Shown here piece after piece: positions 7,278 to 16,283 of a stretch of 21,664 bases of DNA (position 1 is the first letter of the stretch; each line of letters begins with the position of its first letter). The notes beneath the pieces were generated by a model that had not been told where the DNA came from, ran no database searches, and saw only the letters and a list, made by a program, of their open reading frames with translations. Where the stretch lies: contig FN649735.1 of the NCBI GenBank assembly GCA_000310025.1, positions 2,548,377 to 2,570,040 of the forward strand, given 5' to 3'. The position numbers and the translations under genes are program-made. This DNA is from Ectocarpus siliculosus. Lineage: Eukaryota > Sar > Phaeophyceae > Ectocarpales > Ectocarpaceae.

Positions 7278-7734
7278 CGACCTTCGTCGAGGTTGTTCAT
7301 CTGCCGTGGGGTTCATTTGCGTCGTCGGAGGAAGGCCCGCGATGGTATCAAAGGTGTTGTCGGCGAGTGTAGTGTGCCTTTATCCCTTCACGTCTTGCTC
7401 GCGGTATGTGCGAACCTAGGTGAACCAGCCGTACACACACGTGAGAATCGTTCCAGCTGCACTGGGGGTTCGTCCTATTTATGCGGTGCACAACACGTAC
7501 GGGCTTTCCTGCCCGAGGATCGCCATATCGCAATTACCTTCGTCACGTCATGCGCCTGGAACCTGTAACTGGTAACTGAAGTTGCATATTTCTATGATGC
7601 AATGATGCGCTTGGGCAAGTATGTGCTCGTCCCATCGTTCCGTTTCTTGATGAGAGCTGCAGAACTGCTCCAAAATCAAAGTCATTTTTACCGCCTGCCT
7701 GTTAAAGGTGACTTGCACGACCGTCGTTTTACTA
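7278..7734. other. No recognisable gene
   Basis: Short ORFs on both strands only. This is spacer between the KDZ coding part and the palindromic repeat block, perhaps part of the same element. Confidence 0.4.
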
Positions 7735-7965
7735 TTATAAAAGTCCCCAAACTGACTGTTAGTAATGTGCACCCACCTCACTTTCATAAGAGTCAGCTGA
7801 CTGTAACAACAGTGTTTGAACTGATACCTCACTTTCATAATGGTCAGCTGACAGTCGTTTCACTTTTATAAAAGTCACCAAACTGACTGTTAGTAATGTG
7901 CACCCACATCACTTTCATAAGAGTCAGCTGACTGTTACAACAATGTTTGAACTGACACCTCACTT
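7735..7965. repeat. Direct repeat of about 100 bp, offset 131
   Basis: The block 7735-7834 (from TTATAAAAGTC through CCTCACTT) recurs at 7866-7965 with few changes. Each copy contains a CAGCTG-centred inverted motif and a GTGCACCCAC segment. The copies sit inside a larger block of short palindromes. Confidence 0.85.
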
Positions 7966-9465: not shown

Positions 9466-9621
9466 CTATCTACTTCGCCGGCTGAACCGTGCACGGACCT
9501 TCTTTCGCACGGATTCCAGCCAGTTCCGAGTCCCGACCGTGTATGGGTGGTCTGCCCCAAGCTTCTTCGTGCGGATTGAGAGGGATCGTTCGAATAGCGA
9601 AATGGCTTCCTTGTGCTTCCC
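9466..9621 (-). CDS. Terminal TPR exon and stop
   Basis: 51 codons then TAG: GKHKEAISLFERSLSIRTK, LGADHPYTVGTRNWLESVRKK, ending with a basic tail RARFSRRSR. The TVGTRNxLExVRxK ending differs from the inner units and is, as I remember it, the conserved closing exon of such algal TPR receptors. Acceptor TTTCAG. The basic tail could bind lipid or nucleic acid, but that is speculation. Confidence 0.88.
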   Translation of the reverse strand, partial: GKHKEAISLFERSLSIRTKKLGADHPYTVGTRNWLESVRKKVRARFSRRSR

Positions 9622-12600
9622 CTGAAAAAGTTTGACATGGGGTTAGAGAGGCGTAAAGCAAGCAGCACTCGGCGTGAGCGCGCGATGAGAGAAAAAAAAG
9701 TGAAGCCTTGCGTGAAAAATAAGGGCCGCAAGATTGTTCCTGAAATTCTACCGCTTCTCCCTTGTGCCTCCAACAACTCCGTCCCGCCCGGTTGTTGGAG
9801 CACTTGCGAAATGTATCCCTTATCCCACAAAAAAAAATAGAATTTCTGACGGCTCTCACCTGACTCTCCAACAACACCGCCCTGTTGTTAAGCGACTGGG
9901 CTACGTCCGGATGCTCCGGACCCAACATTGTCTCCCTTATGGCCAGTGATCGCTCACAAAGTGGCTCGGCCTCCGCATGGTTGCCCTGTGAAAAGGCGGT
10001 GGGCATCGTGAAGTCAATGGTATTCCGCTGAGCACGCACGAGCCACTGACCCAAGCAGAACCTACAAGGACAAAAACAACACACACACATCCATCGACCC
10101 CCACCTGCATCCTTAATAACTCCGCCCGGTTGTCGAGATACTCGGCAAGAACTGGATGATCTGGACCCAAAGCCTTCTCTCCGATAGCGATGGCTTTCAC
10201 ACATAGAGGTTCCGCTTCGTCAAACTTGCCCTATTCATAGAGCGTCAAGAGAAAACAGGACCACGTGTGATCCCGGCTAGAATATCTGAGTGGGGGGTGG
10301 GAGCGCGCTCAACAACAATCGGGTCGTCGAGCGACAGTGGGTGTTATGCGACAAGCCGCGTCAGAGTGATCCAATACCCACCAACTAGAGGCATCAAACG
10401 CGAAAGGAACTTGTCTAAGGCCGCAAGTAGAAACGAACCCTCGACGACGCACATGGATAACGTCCATGCAGCTGAAACATGCTCTCTCCGAGCCGCCTGT
10501 GCAACGAGGGGCACGGTTTCGGTACATCTGTCCCATGCCGTACGCGACAAACCTGGTGATCCACCAAATGGTGGCCCATTTAAAAAACAAAACCAGCCGC
10601 CGTCGAATGCCACTAGAACGTCGGAAGATCCCCTGGGTTGGGTCCGTACTCTCACCTGCAACCTCAACAACTCCGCCAAGCCGTTGAGTGAATCGGCCAC
10701 GAAACGGTGGTCCGGACCGAGAGCCTTCTCGCGCGTGGCGTGTGACTTCACATACAGTGCTTGGGCCTCGGCGTATTTACCCTGTGAAAAGTTATGGGCT
10801 GCGATCTTAGACGAGGCTGTGGTGTAACCATGGAGGGATTCCTGTTTTTGACGCACGCAGCGATACCAAATTGGTCAGGACCTGGGGAGGTTGATACGAC
10901 GTACGGACATGCTCGTACCCACAGCTACATACATATCACAAACACGGGGTTGGCGCAAGACAGTGGTGCACGGTGAACGCGAAACAAATTATCGGCTCCC
11001 GCTCAAGCGACACGCTGCTTCTCCCACCTGAGCCTTCAACAACTCCGCCCAGTTGTAGAGAAAAAACGCAAGATCTGGATGATCCGGGCTTAAAGCTTTC
11101 TCCGCGATAGCAACAGCTCTGGCGTATAACGGCTCGGCCTCGCTGTATTTGCCCTAGAACCAAGCGGGAAGAGTGCGGGGAGTCTGGTCTAGGATAGTCG
11201 AGAGTACCACGGTCATGAGCAACGACAACGACCTTGAGGCCACTGAAAGCTGTTCACAGTCTTGCGGGTTGTCCCTCATCTGAACAAAAGCCTCTTTGCA
11301 CTTGATGTCTTGTAAGGAAGGGGCCCTAGAAAATCAACAAACGCCGACTCCCAACTTAATACATTAAATCATTGACGCTCACCTGTTTCTTCAACACCCC
11401 AGCCCAGTTGTTGAATGCCGTGGCCACATAGGGGTGTTCGTACCCAAGGTTTTTCTCAAAGACAGCCATCCGAGCGTACATGCTGGCGTATAACGGTTCC
11501 GCCTCGTCGTACTTCCCCTGTAGAGCAAGCAGTTCCGGGCTACTGGAGTCAGTGCATTGCACCAACGCATCCTTAAAAACACACACCCTCCCACTTCCAA
11601 GGGAAAACCACCCCCTCACCTGCTTAGTCAGTAATCCCGCCCAGTTATTGAGCACCTCAGCCACTAAAGGGTGGTCGGGGCCGAGAGTTTTCCGGCGGAT
11701 GGTTAAAGACTGCTTCATCAGTGGTTCGGCTTCCTGATAATTGCCCTGCAATTCCATCAACACGCGAACAGAATGTGGTCACGCCTGAATTAACGGCGCT
11801 CAGTAGTTGACGTCTGTGGCGACCTCCGGTGATCAGAACCGTACACGTTCTCATCGATAGCCAGCGAGCGCTGGTAAAGAGGCTCGGCCTCTTCATACTT
11901 GCCTTGGAATGCGTCAGCGTGGCAAGGGTGGAATTTTGTTACAAGTCGAATCCAGAACTGCGGAGGAGCATCGAAACATAAATTGGCTCTCACCTGACTC
12001 TCCAACAAACTCGCCCGGTGAATGAGCGACTGGGCCACGGCAGGGTGATCAGGCCCTAGCGCTTTCTCGCGGATGGCCAGGGAGCGCTCATACAGCGGTT
12101 CGGCCTGAAAATATTTCCCCTGGAGCGCAATCGACAGCGTGGCAGGGTTGTATTTTAGTCAATATCGTAGTTGCACTGCGGAGAAACAGTTTTTTCTAGT
12201 GCTTCTAGAAACATCGTTTGGCTCTCACCTGTGCTCTGAACAACCCCGCCCGGTGTCGTTGGATAGTCGGGTGAGAACCAACCAATTTCTGCGCCCGGTT
12301 GATGAGCACTGCAATATCCGCAGATCATCACAAAGAAATTCTTCGAAATTTCTCACGGCTCTCACCTGCTCGTGCAACAACCCCGCCCTGTTGTTGAGCA
12401 CTTCCGAAATCTATCGGGTACCACAAGAAACTTCCTGGAATTTTCTGATGGCTCTCACCTGCGCTCTCAACAACTCCGCCCGGTTGTTGAGCGACTGGGC
12501 CACATCAGGATGCTCTGGACCTAGCACCGTCTCCCGTATTGCCTGTGACCGCTCATACAGCGGCTCGGCCTCCTCATATTTCCCCTGGAATGGCGTCGAC

Positions 12601-15600
12601 AGCGTGGGTCTTGTTTTAGCACAAGTGGGATCTAGAACTGCGGAGTAACACTACCTTCTAGAAGAGAATCTAGAAGCAATATTTGGCTCTCACCTGTCTC
12701 TTCAACAACCCCGCCCTGTTGTTGAGCGCTCCCGAAATCTATCGGGTACCACAAGAAACTTCCTGGAATTTTCTGATGGCTCTCACCTGCGCCTCCAACA
12801 ACCCCCGGTTGTCGAGCACTCCCGAAATCTATCGGGTACCACAAGAAACTTCCTGGACTTTCCTGATGGCTCTCACCTGCGCTCTCAACAACTCCGCCCG
12901 GTTGTTGAGCCACACGGCAACATCTGGATGCTCTGGGCCCAACGCCTTCTCTCCGATAGCGATAGCTCTTACGTACAACGGTTCCGCGTCGTCATACTTT
13001 CCCTGAGATATAAGGGAAAAGAGGGAGGAAGGTGTGGTCATCGCTGTGTTATTGAACACTCCCGGAATCTATCGGGTACCACAAGAAACTTCCTGGAATT
13101 TTCTGATGGCTCTCACCTGCGCCTCCAACAACCCCGCCCTGTTGTTGAGCGTTGTGGCCAGACTTGGGTGCTCAAGGTGCTCAGGGCCTAGAATCTTCTC
13201 CTGTATTGCCTGACACCGCTCATAGAGTGGCTCAGCTTCCGAGTATTTGCCCTGGATGCAGTGAGGACAGCGTGATGGAGTCGTACTTCAGTGTGAAAAT
13301 CGTAAACGGGATTGTGGAGAAGCATTTTCTCAACAACCGCGCCGCCCGGTTGTTGAGCGCTTTGGCCACGTCAGAATGCTCCGAGCCCAGCACCTTCTCT
13401 AATATAGTTTGTGATCTCTCATAGAGTGGTTCGGCCTCAGCGAACTTGCCCTGTGCAAAAAGCGGTGGGTTGCCGGAAGACGGCGGGTCGTCCAGAATGC
13501 AAAACTTCAAAACATTACGCGGACACCAACCATCACTCAAGACTTCTAAGCAACAACGACAGCCAAGTATTCTAGAGAACATTTCTTCGACTCCAACCTG
13601 TCATATCATAATCACCAACTTTGCCCCGTGCAACATGCGTGAGCTAGGGGCATGGTGCACCGAGAGTTGAACTTCTCGTCAATACATTTAACAAACTAGA
13701 CTTGCGAACAGGTGTGCCATCGAATGCATCAGTAAACCAACGGTTCATCAGACGGAATAAACAGTCAACAGGACTCCGCACAGCATCTATACGCCACATC
13801 CCACAACACTATGAACACGCTGCGAATATTGCCAAACCCCAATGGACAACACCTGCCATACCTGGATATCGTACAAGAGAGCGACCCATTCGAGGCAATT
13901 AGCCACCTCCGCAGTCGCTTCGCATGAATCCAACTCTCCCAGAATGGCGCGGTACGAGGCAGTCTCCAGTACAGGGTCTCCTGAGAGCTTCTCTAGACAT
14001 CGCCAGAGGGTACCCAAACCGAACAAGCCTTGATTGTCAGCACCGTGCTTCTGGTCTCCGTAACTCATGACCACGTCTAGTCTCCCGAGGTACTGCGCCT
14101 GCAGCGCTGTAGCCTTTTTCACCCTCTCACCGTCTTGCTTGATTTTAACTCTCAAGTACTTGAGGAGGAGGTCATGTACACGGTACCCAACTCCATCCAC
14201 ATCTTGCAGCAGACACTTGTTCACCAGACCCTCAGCTTCCTCCTTCGTACCCTCCACGTCCTGCAAGTTGAACACCAGAGGAGGTGCGCGTCGAGACCAA
14301 TACGCAGCAAGGACATGACCACAGAAAAAAACGCGGATGTTCAACCGTGACATTGCATGTTGCAATAGTCCATCGTGCGCCATACGACTTCGCACAGTCG
14401 ACTTTGCACAGACAGCTAGCCCGCGATTAGCAAGCTGTGTTGAGACGTCCAACAACCCGGTAGAAGGGACATCGCAGCCTACCTGTATCTCCCACAGATT
14501 TCGCAGCATCTCGAACGGCGCAACAGCGCCCGGTGCCAACACAGCCATCCTTAGGAACTCCTCCCGCTTCCTTGCTGCCAACGCATTGAAGCTGGCCCCA
14601 AGGACCATATCGAGATTTCTCGACTCTTCTCCCGGCTCCCACATTATCGTGGTGACGTTCTCGAACTCTTCGATCAGCTCTTCCCAAGCACCGTCCTTCA
14701 AGCCCTTCCCTTTCACGACGGGCATGGAACCCGCGATGGCGAGCACCAGGGGCAGGCGTCCGCAGCGGTCAACAACCTGGATCGGTGTTTAAACGGAGTT
14801 AGCACATCACAAACACGGCAAACCGGTTTGAACGAGATCACCACGTCAGCGATTCCCTCACGTCCTAACCCCTATCTGATGCACTAAGCACTGAGTCCGC
14901 ACCCGATGCCATGCTCAACTCTCAAAAGGCACCAAAAACAAAGAACAATGCTAACACCAACATCACCTTGGTCATTTGTGTCCGGACACCGTCCCCAGGC
15001 TGACCCACAGTCCCACTCGTCTTCCACAACAGCTCCAGCGCCTCATCCTCCGCCATGTCTCCCAGCTCCAGCAACCCCCCCGGAACACCGACAATCGATC
15101 GGTCACGCGTGGTCACCAGCACCTTCAATCCCACCCCAAGAAACGCGGCCACGACCTCGCGCTCCCACACGTCATCCAGCACCACCAAGCGCGGGGAGGA
15201 GCCCCTGGATACCACCGCAGCCAGGTGTTGCATGACCTGCTCCAGGCTGTCGAAGACGTGAGGCACCCCGTGCGGAGCATCCGTGGGTGCTGCGCCCATC
15301 TCCCTTGCCAGGCCCTGCAGGCGGTGTAGGAGACTCTTGTTGGCGCCCCTCCCCATCTCCATCCAGAAAATACCCCCACGGAAGTGCTCCAGGACGCTCG
15401 ACTTCCGCACTAGAGCAGAGGCCAGCACCGTTTTCCCCCCTCCACCCATGCCGACAATCATGTAGGGGGCGAGGGCCTTCTCTGGGTCCATGAGGTCGCC
15501 CATAGCTTCTTGGACGCCGGGCCGCTCCACGTAGCTGCGGGGCAACGCAAGCGCTCCCGTGGGTACGGCGGCCCGTTGGGGCAACGTCGGGGGGAGCACA

Positions 15601-16283
15601 TCGCGAATCATGGTCGAGAAAGCTTTTCTCTGAGCCCAAATGACGGCCGAGGAAACGACGAGCAGCGCTCCGAACACCGCCACGATCGACACGTGCGATG
15701 CGAAGGTGATGCGCACCCCCTCAAGCTGTAGGTCTTGCAAAACAAGCCCTACCACTTCGCCCATGTCGATGTGCGATATCTCATTTCGGTGAGACAGTAT
15801 CACGGCCGCGAACGCGACGAGCAGCGCTGCGAACACCCCTCCCGCGATCGCCACCGGAGTTCCCACGGTGTTGGGTCCCCTCTGTAGCTCCAAGATTTGC
15901 TTGATTGTCTTGCGGGTGTCGATCGACGATTTCGTGGCAATAATGCCGAACAGCTGACGGGCTTCCTTGTCGATGGCGTCCAAGTCTTCCTCGATCGACT
16001 TGTGCTGGGTTCCTCTGTTGACCTTCTTGGCAGCCTTGGCCCACTTGGGGTCCGCAGGGTCTGCCGTGTGTTTCACGTGCAGCGCGTCTATTTCCTCGTA
16101 TAGTCCGCGCAGCCTGAGCAGTTCATTTTTGATATCCGCGAAGTCGCTCTGCAGCAGCACTTGAAGCACGCCGTCGTAGTCCGCGAGCCGGGTGCGCATT
16201 TTGGTCTTAACGGCATCGGCACCCTTCGCGGCATCGCGGATCCTTGTCCCCAACGAAAGCAGCTCCTTGATATCATCGATCAT
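9466..16283 (-). CDS. NB-ARC-TPR (NLR-like) receptor gene, multi-exon
   Basis: A predicted STAND-class immune receptor: nucleotide-driven switch plus TPR ligand-binding superhelix, with an architecture described from Ectocarpus. Coding exons in transcript order are 14967-16283, 14483-14776, 13862-14260, then TPR exons beginning at 13450, 13251, 13002, 12584, 12119, 11745, 11517, 11153, 10781, 10230, 9985 and 9621, with the stop TAG at 9466-9468. All introns are phase 0. Skipping the damaged exons (13325-13450 and 11785-11903) gives about 1147 residues; including the first gives about 1189. NB-ARC motifs visible are GMGGGGKT (Walker A), LVVLDDVW (Walker B/kinase 2), VLVTTR (RNBS-B), CGRLPLVLAIAG (GLPL) and YRVHDLLL (MHD-like). 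TPR units follow GKYxEAEPLYxRxxxIxEKxLGPxHPxVAxxLNNxAxLLxxQ, the kinesin-light-chain/NPHP3-like class. The 5' end is uncertain: ATG 16281-16283 directly follows an acceptor-like CCAG, so a further upstream exon is possible. Binding targets are unknown. Confidence 0.85.
9762..9859 (-). repeat. Decayed exon-tail plus spacer unit
   Basis: A tail of 39 bp (9762-9800) encodes ELLEAQ-like sequence but its junction is CAA/GGGAGA, so the donor is dead. It is followed by a 59-bp spacer (9801-9859) with a long A run, recognisably related to the 60-bp spacer of the other units. It shows the repeat family reaches the 3' end of the array. Confidence 0.7.
9860..9985 (-). CDS. TPR exon 11
   Basis: 42 codons: GNHAEAEPLCERSLAIRET, LGPEHPDVAQSLNNRAVLLESQ. 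Acceptor TTCACAG and donor CAG/GTGAGAGCC. Closely related to the exon at 12459-12584. Confidence 0.9.
10105..10230 (-). CDS. TPR exon 10
   Basis: 42 codons: GKFDEAEPLCVKAIAIGEK, LGPDHPVLAEYLDNRAELLRMQ, with a TAG acceptor (GAATAG) and CAG/GTGGGG donor. Cys takes the usual Tyr position after PL, as it does in the next exon. Counted in transcript order with the fossil left out. Confidence 0.88.
10656..10781 (-). CDS. TPR exon 9
   Basis: 42 codons: GKYAEAQALYVKSHATREK, LGPDHRFVADSLNGLAELLRLQ; PLY is ALY and NNRA is NGLA. Acceptor TTCACAG, donor CAG/GTGAGAG. Confidence 0.88.
11028..11153 (-). CDS. TPR exon 8
   Basis: 42 codons: GKYSEAEPLYARAVAIAEK, LSPDHPDLAFFLYNWAELLKAQ. Acceptor TTCTAG and donor CAG/GTGGGA are acceptable but not the common form. 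FFLYNWAE replaces xxLNNRAE. Confidence 0.88.
11383..11517 (-). CDS. TPR exon 7 (45 codons, expanded)
   Basis: GKYDEAEPLYASMYARMAVFEK, then LGYEHPYVATAFNNWAGVLKKQ. The three extra residues lie in helix A, where ASMYARMA looks like a small internal repeat; the other expanded unit (TPR exon 2) is expanded in the turn instead. Acceptor CTACAG, donor CAG/GTGAGC. Confidence 0.88.
11620..11745 (-). CDS. TPR exon 6
   Basis: 42 codons: GNYQEAEPLMKQSLTIRRK, LGPDHPLVAEVLNNWAGLLTKQ, with AATTGCAG acceptor and CAG/GTGAGG donor. Helix A is unusual: the PLY of most units is PLM. Confidence 0.9.
11785..11903 (-). pseudogene. Fossil TPR exon
   Basis: GKYEEAEPLYQRSLAIDEN and GSDH are clear, then the frame breaks. 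The acceptor CCAG/GG is changed to CCAAGG, the unit is 119 bp instead of 126, a stop follows in either frame, and the donor is CAG/GCGTGA. The intron to the next exon would be only 39 bp. It is almost certainly no longer spliced in and is removed as part of the 11746-11993 intron. Confidence 0.8.
11994..12119 (-). CDS. TPR exon 5
   Basis: 42 codons: GKYFQAEPLYERSLAIREK, LGPDHPAVAQSLIHRASLLESQ; the usual NNRA is IHRA. Acceptor CTCCAG and donor CAG/GTGAGAGCC are intact. Confidence 0.9.
12229..12365 (-). repeat. Two decayed exon-tail units
   Basis: A tail at 12278-12306 (LINRA, donor lost) with a diverged 59-bp spacer (12307-12365) lies beside a second tail at 12229-12258 (RHRAGLFRAQ) that still has CAG/GTGAGAGCC. 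They are older members of the same family as the 90/93-bp units and show the process has gone on for some time. Confidence 0.7.
12366..12458 (-). repeat. Exon-tail plus spacer unit, 93 bp
   Basis: A 33-bp tail (12366-12398, LNNRAGLLHEQ) with an intact CAG/GTGAGAGCC junction plus the 60-bp spacer (12399-12458) that follows TPR exon 4. It is nearly identical to the units at 12694-12876. Confidence 0.85.
12459..12584 (-). CDS. TPR exon 4
   Basis: 42 codons: GKYEEAEPLYERSQAIRET, LGPEHPDVAQSLNNRAELLRAQ with canonical acceptor and CAG/GTGAGAGCC donor. It is close to TPR exon 12 (IRET and PEHPDVAQSLNNRA shared), pointing to duplication and dispersal within the array. Confidence 0.9.
12694..12876 (-). 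repeat. Two tandem exon-tail plus spacer units (93 and 90 bp)
   Basis: Unit 12787-12876 has a 30-bp exon tail (LDNRGLLEAQ, one codon short) plus a 60-bp spacer; unit 12694-12786 has a 33-bp tail (LNNRAGLLKRQ) plus the same spacer. Each tail keeps the junction CAG/GTGAGAGCC, so there are three good donors in a row (exon 3 and both tails) but no acceptor or 5' exon half for the tails. The spacers contain CCCGA...TCGGG inverted repeats. Because the periods are multiples of three, a meaningless ORF (12632-12913) stays open across them. Confidence 0.85.
12877..13002 (-). CDS. TPR exon 3
   Basis: 42 codons: GKYDDAEPLYVRAIAIGEK, LGPEHPDVAVWLNNRAELLRAQ, with CTCAG acceptor and CAG/GTGAGAGCC donor. 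It resembles TPR exon 11 (AIAIGEKALGP in both), suggesting they share a recent ancestor. Confidence 0.9.
13057..13116 (-). repeat. 60-bp intronic spacer repeat, copy next to TPR exon 2
   Basis: This is the shared 60-bp intron start found after several TPR exons. Read from the donor it has GTGAGAGCCATCAG at one end, a GGTACC site and a CCCGG/AATC/TATCGGG-like inverted motif. It is followed by a worn exon tail (13024-13056, FNNTAM instead of LNNRAG) that has lost its donor. Confidence 0.8.
13117..13251 (-). CDS. TPR exon 2 (45 codons, expanded)
   Basis: GKYSEAEPLYERCQAIQEK, then LGPEHLEHPSLATTLNNRAGLLEAQ and a CAG/GTGAGAGCC donor. It is nine bases longer than the 126-bp norm because a segment like TTGAGCACC is duplicated, giving EHLEHPSL in place of EHPxV at the turn between the two helices. 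The splice sites are intact and the frame is kept. Confidence 0.85.
13325..13450 (-). pseudogene. TPR exon 1, 5' splice site lost
   Basis: A good acceptor leads into GKFAEAEPLYERSQTILEK, then LGSEHSDVAKALNNRAARLL. The end differs from all intact units: three extra bases sit near the RAARLL codons and the expected CAG/GTGAG is replaced by AGAAAATGCTTC. No plausible GT donor occurs before the next acceptor 73 bases away, and reading through gives a stop within the next exon in the wrong frame. The exon is therefore probably skipped (phase 0 makes that harmless) or uses a non-canonical site. Confidence 0.6.
13451..13861 (-). other. Receptor intron 3 (411 bp)
   Basis: Donor CAG/GTATGG at 13861 and acceptor TGCACAG before 13450. 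If the damaged first TPR exon is skipped, the intron would extend to 13252. No exon-like TPR sequence was seen inside it. Confidence 0.6.
13862..14260 (-). CDS. Receptor exon 3: MHD-like motif, helical linker
   Basis: 133 codons, phase 0. DVEGTKEEAEGLVNKCLLQD is followed by GYRVHDLLLKYLRVKIKQ, whose VHD corresponds to the MHD motif of NB-ARC proteins that senses the nucleotide state (residues about 565-567 of the protein). The rest is a helical region with LWRCLEKLSGD, ILGELDSCEATAEVANCLE and ends LLYDIQ at a CAG/GTATGG donor. The final helix matches the first half of a TPR-like hairpin leading into the array. Confidence 0.85.
14261..14482 (-). other. Receptor intron 2 (222 bp, no stop codons)
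   Basis: It runs from CAG/GTAGGC to AACTTGCAG/GACGTG. Its length is 74 codons and the reading frame stays open through it, so the genomic ORF looks continuous. I call it an intron because removing it joins LWEIQ to DVEGTKEEAEGLVNKCLLQ, the expected NB-ARC continuity, and because the acceptor has a pyrimidine-rich approach. Confidence 0.75.
14483..14776 (-). CDS. Receptor exon 2: GLPL motif and ARC1
   Basis: 98 codons, phase 0 at both ends. It begins VVDRCGRLPLVLAIAGSM, the GLPL motif that packs against the nucleotide, followed by helices of the ARC region (WEELIEEFENV, LDMVLGASFNALAARKREEF) and ends at LRNLWEIQ before GTAGGC. The LAxSFNxL segment and hydrophobic RMAVLAPG are typical of the ARC2 winged-helix start. 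Confidence 0.85.
14777..14966 (-). other. Receptor intron 1 (190 bp, phase 0)
   Basis: It starts GTGATG after AAG and ends GATCCAG before GTTGTTGAC. Splicing joins TQMTK to VVDRCGRLPL and completes the GLPL region of the NB-ARC domain, which is strong evidence that both splice sites are right. Confidence 0.85.
14967..16283 (-). CDS. Receptor exon 1: helical N-terminus, 2 TM, NB-ARC
   Basis: 439 codons from ATG 16283 to an AAG/GTGATG donor. Residues 1-135 are charged and heptad-like (MIDDIKELLSLGTRIRDAAK at the start), suggesting a helical bundle or coiled coil. Residues about 140-164 and 194-217 are hydrophobic and likely membrane-spanning. They align over 16 residues at a 53-residue offset (FAALLVAFAAVILSHR and FGALLVVSSAVIWAQR), so they look like an internal duplication. 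The NB-ARC part has Walker A GMGGGGKT at 278-285, GGIFWMEM (RNBS-A) at 303-310, LVVLDDVWE at 366-374, LKVLVTTRDRS at 386-396 and a LELGDMAEDEALELLW segment (RNBS-C) at about 405-420. Translation can also be extended to an ATG at 16334, adding 17 hydrophobic residues, but that stretch is better read as the pyrimidine tract of an intron. Confidence 0.85.

What the first reader, a model, noticed from the sequence alone, without database searches (positions are those of the whole stretch)
9466..16283. NLR-like receptor with a one-exon-per-TPR array built for shuffling
Every TPR is encoded by its own exon, all introns are phase 0 and exon lengths are multiples of three (126 bp, or 135 in two cases), so exons can be lost, gained or skipped without breaking the frame. 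Published work on Ectocarpus described NB-ARC-TPR genes with rapid TPR exon shuffling as candidate pathogen receptors; this locus fits and shows the process caught in several stages (intact, expanded, donor-less, fossil, tail-only).
Basis: partly seen in the sequence, partly recalled or inferred. Interest (0 to 1): 0.85.

Follow-up and report, generated by a model that had tools for sequence, protein, structure and literature searches.

The report
Receptor gene with swapped repeat cassettes
This is an immune-type receptor gene, probably of a brown alga, that trades its ligand-reading repeats with sister genes elsewhere in the genome, and many of these trades begin and end at one short conserved DNA stretch inside the exons rather than in the introns between them.

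Summary
On the minus strand, 16283-9466 splices in silico into an unbroken 1147-aa NB-ARC/TPR protein with 14 exons and 13 phase-0 introns. The family and its TPR exon shuffling are already published as candidate immune receptors (passages in PMC11378527; the primary papers were not held), so the headline is known.

Three corrections. (1) Exons are not TPRs: each intron splits a TPR between helix A and helix B. (2) "Tail-only" copies are partly recombination joints and partly tandem duplicates of a 90-bp piece, not simply decaying exons. (3) In the active gene group many exchanged tracts end in a 24-nt stretch inside the exon, codons 32-39 (LNNRAxLL), whose synonymous sites are unusually conserved in 100 exons and in 105 hold-out exons. 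A 263-bp cassette here (12466-12728) is 99.2% identical to one on contig C2, with this element at both ends and flanks at random similarity. Of 145 near-identical tracts, 32 have both ends at the element, against 1.1 expected.

Hold-out loci do not show the exon-internal joints. Whether the element is a dedicated recombination site, a splicing element or just conserved homology is open.

The parts
14967..16283 (-). Exon 1: N-terminal helical region with two hydrophobic stretches, then NB-ARC with GMGGGGKT (P-loop) and LVVLDDVW (motif names recalled)
   Evidence: Pfam NB-ARC E 2.7e-15; Foldseek to Apaf-1, CED-4, NRC; open frame and donor
14483..14776 (-). Exon 2: GRLPL motif (name recalled) and following part
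   Evidence: phase 0, AG/GT
13862..14260 (-). Exon 3: contains VHD (MHD-like, recalled) and ends in the first TPR helix A
   Evidence: phase 0, AG/GT
13328..13450 (-). T1: TPR exon with acceptor, no donor (head-only); left out of the model
13117..13251 (-). T2: 135-bp TPR exon with a 9-bp expansion
12877..13002 (-). T3: 126-bp TPR exon, 99.2% to a C2 exon
12787..12816 (-). tail-only copy in intron
12694..12726 (-). tail-only copy in intron; its element is the left end of the 263-bp cassette
12466..12728 (-). exchanged cassette, 99.2% to C2:8312223-8312485, element at both ends
12459..12584 (-). T4: 126-bp TPR exon
12468..12491 (-). 24-nt element in T4 (codons 32-39)
12366..12398 (-). tail-only copy in intron
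12229..12261 (-). degenerate tail-only copy in intron
11994..12119 (-). T5: 126-bp TPR exon
11826..11903 (-). T6: broken TPR exon (AA at the usual acceptor place, frameshift, no donor)
11620..11745 (-). T7: 126-bp TPR exon
11383..11517 (-). T8: 135-bp TPR exon with a 9-bp expansion
11028..11153 (-). T9: 126-bp TPR exon
10656..10781 (-). T10: 126-bp TPR exon
10105..10230 (-). T11: 126-bp TPR exon
9860..9985 (-). T12: 126-bp TPR exon
9767..9799 (-). very degenerate tail-like copy in intron
9466..9621 (-). T13: last exon, helix B, C-terminal end and stop

Best explanation
A gene for a STAND-type receptor: helical N-terminus, NB-ARC switch, winged-helix part, and a TPR solenoid of about eleven repeats. 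Shown: intact frame and switch motifs, exact exon/intron grammar, exchange of T2-T4 material with C2 loci, joints inside exons at a 24-nt element in the active gene group, synonymous conservation of that element. Inferred: the solenoid binds ligands mainly through helix-A positions, and NB-ARC turns binding into signalling. Inferred mechanism of diversification: ectopic recombination or gene conversion between loci uses the 24-nt stretch CTCAACAACCGGGCGGGGTTGTTG in each exon as its homology, so the cassette that moves is [element, exon tail, donor, intron, acceptor, next exon head, element]. Since every element sits at the same codon phase and every intron is phase 0, any such cassette keeps the frame. 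Each joint lies within helix A, so a swap puts a new end of helix A, intron and next repeat behind an old head. Some intron-borne tail copies arise when an element in an intron takes part.
For: Gene model without inner stop. NB-ARC; 36 Foldseek hits at E<=0.001, all apoptosome, CED-4 or plant NLR chains. Mosaic: exon 1 matches at 84% DNA identity or less in the 14 stretches compared, while T2-T4 blocks reach 91-99% with C2 loci. 85 of 100 exon pairs with near-identical downstream introns have unlike heads, against 4 of 52 with near-identical upstream introns (76 of 100 exons used). The identity profile switches at codons 32-40 in both directions. Two intron classes are each joined to the same five head classes. 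Cassette 12466-12728: 0.992 inside, 0.367 and 0.375 in the flanks, random 0.37; 145 tracts: 68 start, 69 end, 32 both at an element, random means 10.0, 9.9, 1.1, maxima 19, 17, 4 in 200 trials. Synonymous variation at codons 32-39 is 0.27-0.38 of expectation, on average 0.89-1.0 elsewhere; hold-out 0.44 against 0.91, lowest window again at codon 32. pN/pS 1.34 at helix-A concave positions, 0.34-0.49 elsewhere.
Against: Exon-internal joints with shared introns appear only among L005, L006, L010, L015 and the window; in the hold-out none of 3 (>=0.9) or 14 (>=0.8) intron-sharing pairs has unlike heads. L012 and L014 grow by whole-unit tandem duplication. Tract ends also occur in introns and near splice sites. 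Tracts and pairs are not independent events: the 85 pairs involve 25 exons, and the 145 tracts have 83 distinct start sites, 32 of them at an exon element. The element is also conserved (0.45-0.48) in exons with no sign of recent exchange, so recombination alone may not explain it. No expression, ligand or strain data.
Confidence: 0.72

Rival explanations
1. Conventional exon shuffling: whole exons with intron flanks are duplicated and moved by unequal crossing over in introns.
For: All 13 introns of the model are phase 0; L012 and L014 are whole-unit tandem arrays; some tract ends lie in introns; hold-out loci show no exon-internal joints.
Against: In the active group the downstream intron is largely unlinked from the exon head, two intron classes are mixed with the same five head classes, and the 99.2% cassette ends inside T4.
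Confidence: 0.2
2. The 24-nt stretch is conserved because it is an exonic splicing element (enhancer or hairpin near the donor); it serves as a crossover place only because it is a long shared word.
For: Conserved in old exons (0.45-0.48) and in the hold-out (0.44); it ends 9 nt before the donor; its arms can pair (-15.2 kcal/mol as RNA) and pairing across exons exceeds 500 of 500 shuffles, which do not allow for relatedness.
Against: More strongly conserved in exchanging loci (0.10 all, 0.21 deduplicated); the hairpin loop codons are about as conserved as the arms; the pairing excess is small, 0.761 against 0.747, and the DNA fold of T4 is unexceptional (z -1.02); six spliceable old exons here have drifted from the consensus.
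Confidence: 0.3
3. The introns are mobile (introner-like) and carry exon tails with them.
For: Near-identical introns follow unlike heads.
Against: Same position in the same gene family each time; by position the listed matches of the T2-T4 blocks fall in or near loci with TPR exons, a few not checked one by one; the cassette includes a coding head.
Confidence: 0.05
4. Assembly artefact: short identical words caused false joins.
For: Joints sit at a short repeated word; one unnamed assembly, no reads.
Against: Cassettes differ by point changes, tail copies also by indels; the joined frame is open over 14 exons; the window's contig is 4.5 Mb and C2 is 9.3 Mb.
Confidence: 0.05
5. The locus is a decaying pseudogene.
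For: T1 and T6 are broken; no expression data.
Against: Intact 1147-aa frame with P-loop and VHD; pN/pS of the family is low outside the helix-A positions.
Confidence: 0.1

Closest known systems
[quoted passage not shown] 2012, doi 10.1093/molbev/msr296; Teng et al. 2023, doi 10.1111/tpj.16131)
   Same: NB-ARC plus TPR, repeat exons, exon shuffling, candidate immune role. I saw only citations and passages in other papers; that each repeat has its own exon, with diversifying selection and birth-and-death, is recalled.
   Different: Exon-internal 24-nt boundary element and its synonymous conservation; I do not know whether either paper reports it, since neither could be read.
Brown-algal ROCO LRR genes (PMC11378527, passages)
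   Same: One LRR per in-phase exon, shuffling, alternative splicing
   Different: 72-bp phase-2 LRR exons with ROC-COR; here 126-bp phase-0 TPR exons with NB-ARC
Tetrahymena 90-bp LRR exon genes (PMC6564038, passages)
   Same: Very many equal in-phase repeat exons, attributed to ectopic recombination
   Different: LRR, phase 2, possibly retrotransposon linked; no exon-internal element in the passages seen
Lamprey VLR assembly (recalled; search listing only)
   Same: Repeat modules joined through short homologies inside coding sequence (recalled)
   Different: VLR is somatic, LRR-based and deaminase-linked; nothing somatic is shown here
Kinesin light chain TPR
   Same: 42-residue TPR; best solved relatives by sequence
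   Different: No NB-ARC and a different role (recalled)

Membership tests
NB-ARC-TPR candidate receptors | NB-ARC domain with P-loop | tested here: met
NB-ARC-TPR candidate receptors | C-terminal TPR array | tested here: met
   TPR_12 1.8e-53, TPR_10 3.2e-49 on four joined exons
NB-ARC-TPR candidate receptors | one repeat-length in-phase exon per repeat | tested here: met
NB-ARC-TPR candidate receptors | exchange of repeat exons between genes | tested here: met
NB-ARC-TPR candidate receptors | diversifying selection on the TPRs | tested here: inconclusive
   pN/pS 1.34, 0.88 in the hold-out against 0.39 elsewhere; uncorrected distances
NB-ARC-TPR candidate receptors | alternative splicing of TPR exons | not testable with these tools
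   no transcripts
NB-ARC-TPR candidate receptors | brown-algal genome | not tested
Plant NLR (NB-LRR) | LRR sensor domain | tested here: not met
   no LRR in exon 1, the exon 2-3 frame or four joined TPR exons; the other TPR exons were not scanned with Pfam
VLR-like somatic assembly | somatic joints in individual cells | not testable with these tools
   one assembly only

The most novel reading that the evidence does not exclude
The 24-nt stretch is a dedicated recombination site written into coding sequence: TPR exons carry it in the same codon phase, so frame-safe cassettes can be exchanged between receptor genes on different chromosomes, in the germline and perhaps in somatic cells, an algal counterpart of lamprey VLR assembly by short coding homologies.
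Probability: 0.15. Interest if true: 0.92.

Novelty: new variant of a known kind. Interest (0 to 1): 0.62.

Why it matters
Brown algae have been proposed to build an immune repertoire by shuffling repeat exons, perhaps somatically; in the passages I could read, somatic joints and a recombinase are said to be unreported. If the joints lie at one 24-nt coding element, the idea becomes directly testable: look for new joints at that element in strains, pedigrees and single-individual long reads, and recode the element. It also warns that site tests of selection that assume even synonymous rates may be misled near codons 32-39.

Tried and rejected
Hairpin idea: the element is an inverted repeat (-15.2 kcal/mol as RNA). 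Loop and arm codons are about equally conserved. Pairing across 100 exons is 0.761 against 0.747 in shuffles; 0 of 500 shuffles reach it (2 of 500 without L012 and L014), but shuffles ignore relatedness and the excess is small. The DNA fold at T4 is unexceptional (z -1.02). Dropped as the main explanation, not excluded. Control with TPR arrays whose repeats run on in open frames (34 repeats, L018-L021) shows no dip at codons 32-39 (0.73 against 0.77), but their residues there differ and L020 and L021 have only short frames, so the control is not fully matched. ROCO comparison: the COR-A model found only one place, so I did not pursue it. Hold-out test of exon-internal joints: negative. Rfam: nothing at gathering score in the window. 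tRNA: none. Flanking frames: seven long frames outside the gene, of those I chose to scan, gave no Pfam match. AlphaFold of exon 1: mean pLDDT 61, residues 121-246 below 50; only the NB-ARC match is used. Literature searches; the two primary papers were not held, so I make no claim that the element is unreported.
Full report
What is there. On its minus strand, exon 1 (16283-14967), exon 2 (14776-14483), exon 3 (14260-13862) and eleven TPR exons (T2-T5, T7-T13) join in silico to an unbroken 1147-aa frame that ends with the stop at 9466; all 13 introns are phase 0. Exon 1 matches NB-ARC (E 2.7e-15) and four joined TPR exons match TPR_12 and TPR_10. An AlphaFold model of exon 1 is only fair (pLDDT 61), but its 36 Foldseek hits at E<=0.001 are all Apaf-1, Dark, CED-4 or plant NLR chains. 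The nearest solved TPRs by sequence are kinesin light chains.

Register. The best Pfam TPR_10 match starts at codon 28 of T4 and runs across the intron to codon 26 of T5. Exon 3 ends with a helix-A-like stretch (VANCLEWVALLYDIQ) and T13 begins with a helix B. So each intron cuts a TPR between its helices, and an exon holds helix B of one repeat and helix A of the next. The helix assignment uses canonical TPR numbering that I recall.

Exon grammar. I surveyed this window and 14 related 8.6-10 kb stretches (L004-L017; L009 has no copy): 108 full copies, 107 with AG, 103 with GT; of 102 with both, 100 are 126 bp and 2 are 135 bp. The two 135-bp exons are T2 and T8 of this window. In 17 other loci (L025-L041) there are 109 full copies, 109 with AG, 105 with GT, 3 GC, 1 TC; all 105 AG+GT copies are 126 bp.

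Exchange between loci. Exon 1 of the window matches at 84% DNA identity or less in the stretches compared, yet T2-T4 blocks, introns included, are up to 91-99% identical to loci on contig C2. T3 is 99.2% identical to an exon of L010, T2 92.9% (its 9-nt expansion left out), T4 89.7% to its best full copy; T5-T12 do not exceed 80% with any exon of another locus (205 exons compared, T8 without its expansion). For 79 of the 205 exons the nearest neighbour is in the same locus, where label shuffles give 7.3; for the other 126 it is in another locus.

Where the joints are. I compared 76 of the 100 discovery exons (L012, L014 and one exon near an end dropped). Of 100 pairs whose downstream intron starts are at least 0.9 alike, 85 have exon heads below 0.75; of 52 pairs alike in the upstream intron, 4 do. 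The 85 pairs involve 25 exons of L005, L006, L010, L015 and the window. For them codons 1-31 stay near background, similarity rises to about 1 from codon 33 on, and codon 41 is at 0.89 against 0.31. For 93 pairs (49 exons) with alike heads and unlike introns, similarity stays high to codon 39, with dips at codons 27, 28, 30, 31 and 37, and is at background at codons 40-41. With single-linkage classes, intron classes I7 and I8 are each joined to the same five head classes, which needs recombination between head and intron; T2, T3 and T4 of this window all carry I8 with three different head classes.

The clearest case is window 12728-12466: 263 bp at 99.2% to C2:8312223-8312485, beginning two bases before an element in an intronic tail copy and ending two bases after the element of T4, with flanks at 0.367 and 0.375 when random stretches give 0.37. 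The C2 partner of T4 is itself a copy cut off at the element (L010 8060-8185, profile 3-128), while T4 has an intact tail and donor. Among 145 tracts of 90-1200 bp and at least 94% identity between loci, 68 start, 69 end and 32 do both at an element (within it or up to 6 bases outside, scored on the first member of each pair); random placement gives 10.0, 9.9 and 1.1 with maxima 19, 17 and 4 in 200 trials. Counting both members, 235 of 290 starts and 196 of 290 ends fall in the zone around an exon; of these 121 starts lie in exon bases 72-95 and 97 ends in 96-119. A local alignment always runs on through a conserved stretch, so a joint can be placed only within or at the edge of the element, not to the base; and tracts are not independent (83 distinct start sites, 32 at an exon element).

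The element. Codons 32-39 encode LNNRAxLL as CTCAACAACCGGGCGGGGTTGTTG. Synonymous variation there is 0.38 of expectation in all 100 exons, 0.27 without L012 and L014, and 0.32 in 22 exons whose heads are under 70% alike; the other codons average 0.89-1.0 and the next-lowest eight-codon window is 0.78-0.91. Single codons elsewhere are also low (42 beside the donor; 18 in some sets; 31 and 40 when L012 and L014 are left out), but codon 41 is not. The hold-out of 105 exons gives 0.44 against 0.91 and the lowest eight-codon window again starts at codon 32; codons 18 and 42 are low there too. Exchanging loci show 0.10 (0.21 after deduplication, 11 exons, interval 0.07-0.35), other discovery exons 0.45-0.48 (0.36-0.54 for 33 deduplicated). 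At up to one mismatch the pattern occurs 145 times in the genome, and its backwards control 0 times; of the first places listed, nearly all lie by position in TPR loci found here, and a few were not checked.

Tail-only and head-only copies. Of 19 tail-only copies in the fetched loci, 12 share one left flank (...GATAGATTTCGGGAGTG or close to it). Eight of these run on into the same right flank, as tandem duplication of a 90-bp piece would give; four run on into other right flanks of three kinds, as joints at the element would give. DNA-profile ends cluster in the same way: 27 of 54 copies cut before profile position 135 end at 125-134, and 16 of 26 copies that start at position 20 or later start at 90-109; a second, smaller group of ends lies at 85-104 (17 of 54). 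T1 lacks a donor in the same way as copies in L005, L006 and L015.

Results against. In the hold-out, 0 of 3 pairs (>=0.9) and 0 of 14 (>=0.8) with alike downstream introns have unlike heads, so exon-internal joints with shared introns are shown only for L005, L006, L010, L015 and this window. L012 and L014 expand by whole-unit tandem duplication. Conservation of the element in old exons means that a splicing role remains possible.

Selection. At the helix-A concave positions (canonical TPR positions 2, 5, 9, 12, 13, recalled; exon codons 30, 33, 37, 40, 41) pN/pS is 1.34; other parts give 0.34-0.49, Fisher p 7.5e-7 on rounded counts. In the hold-out it is 0.88 against 0.39 (with a looser pairing limit), higher than elsewhere but not above 1. 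Distances are uncorrected.

How it most likely works. Shown: frame, domains, exchange, joints, element. Inferred: ligand reading by the TPR surface and switching by NB-ARC, by analogy with Apaf-1 and NLRs; exchange by ectopic recombination or gene conversion through the 24-nt homology. Germline or somatic timing is unknown.

Comparison with what is known. The family, its exon shuffling and candidate immune role are published; I saw this in passages of PMC11378527, PMC5772912 and PMC12879055, not in the primary papers. PMC11378527 notes that somatic recombinant loci and a recombinase have not been reported. Tetrahymena LRR genes are a parallel (PMC6564038, passages). I therefore rate the gene itself a member of a known kind and the exon-internal, element-bounded exchange a new variant, with the caution that the two primary papers may already describe it.

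Noticed in passing
L022 (G000:C16:824600-827900), also L023 and L024: A satellite-like array in which TPR exon copies alternate in orientation with a unit of about 269 bp; most + copies stop near codon 32, where they meet the inverted copy.
   Followed up: partly
L015 (G000:C6:3466500-3476499), about 109-939: A chimeric gene: N-terminal domain like the window's (57% over residues 2-131), the rest 94% identical to L005 over 5 kb; at least two kinds of N-terminal domain sit on similar NB-ARCs in this family.
   Followed up: partly
L012 and L014: Regular whole-unit tandem arrays of TPR exon plus intron (about 0.7 and 0.45 kb), a different way of growing; their elements match the consensus less well, 17.9 and 19.1 of 24, but so do those of L013, 17.4.
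   Followed up: partly
L018 (G000:C6:3062300-3065200), also L019: Long open frames (850 and 604 aa) with the same 42-residue repeat period and no introns between repeats.
   Followed up: partly
window 13117-13251 and 11383-11517: The only two 135-bp exons among 207 with AG and GT; both carry an in-frame 9-bp expansion that looks by eye like a local duplication.
   Followed up: partly
L005 and L006, head-only copies: The same donor-removing joint (GTTGTTGAGC then AATTGTTAG or ATTTGTTAG) sits behind four different exon heads.
   Followed up: partly
window 7719-7965: A 131-bp unit repeated 1.9 times, 93% alike, outside the gene.
   Followed up: no
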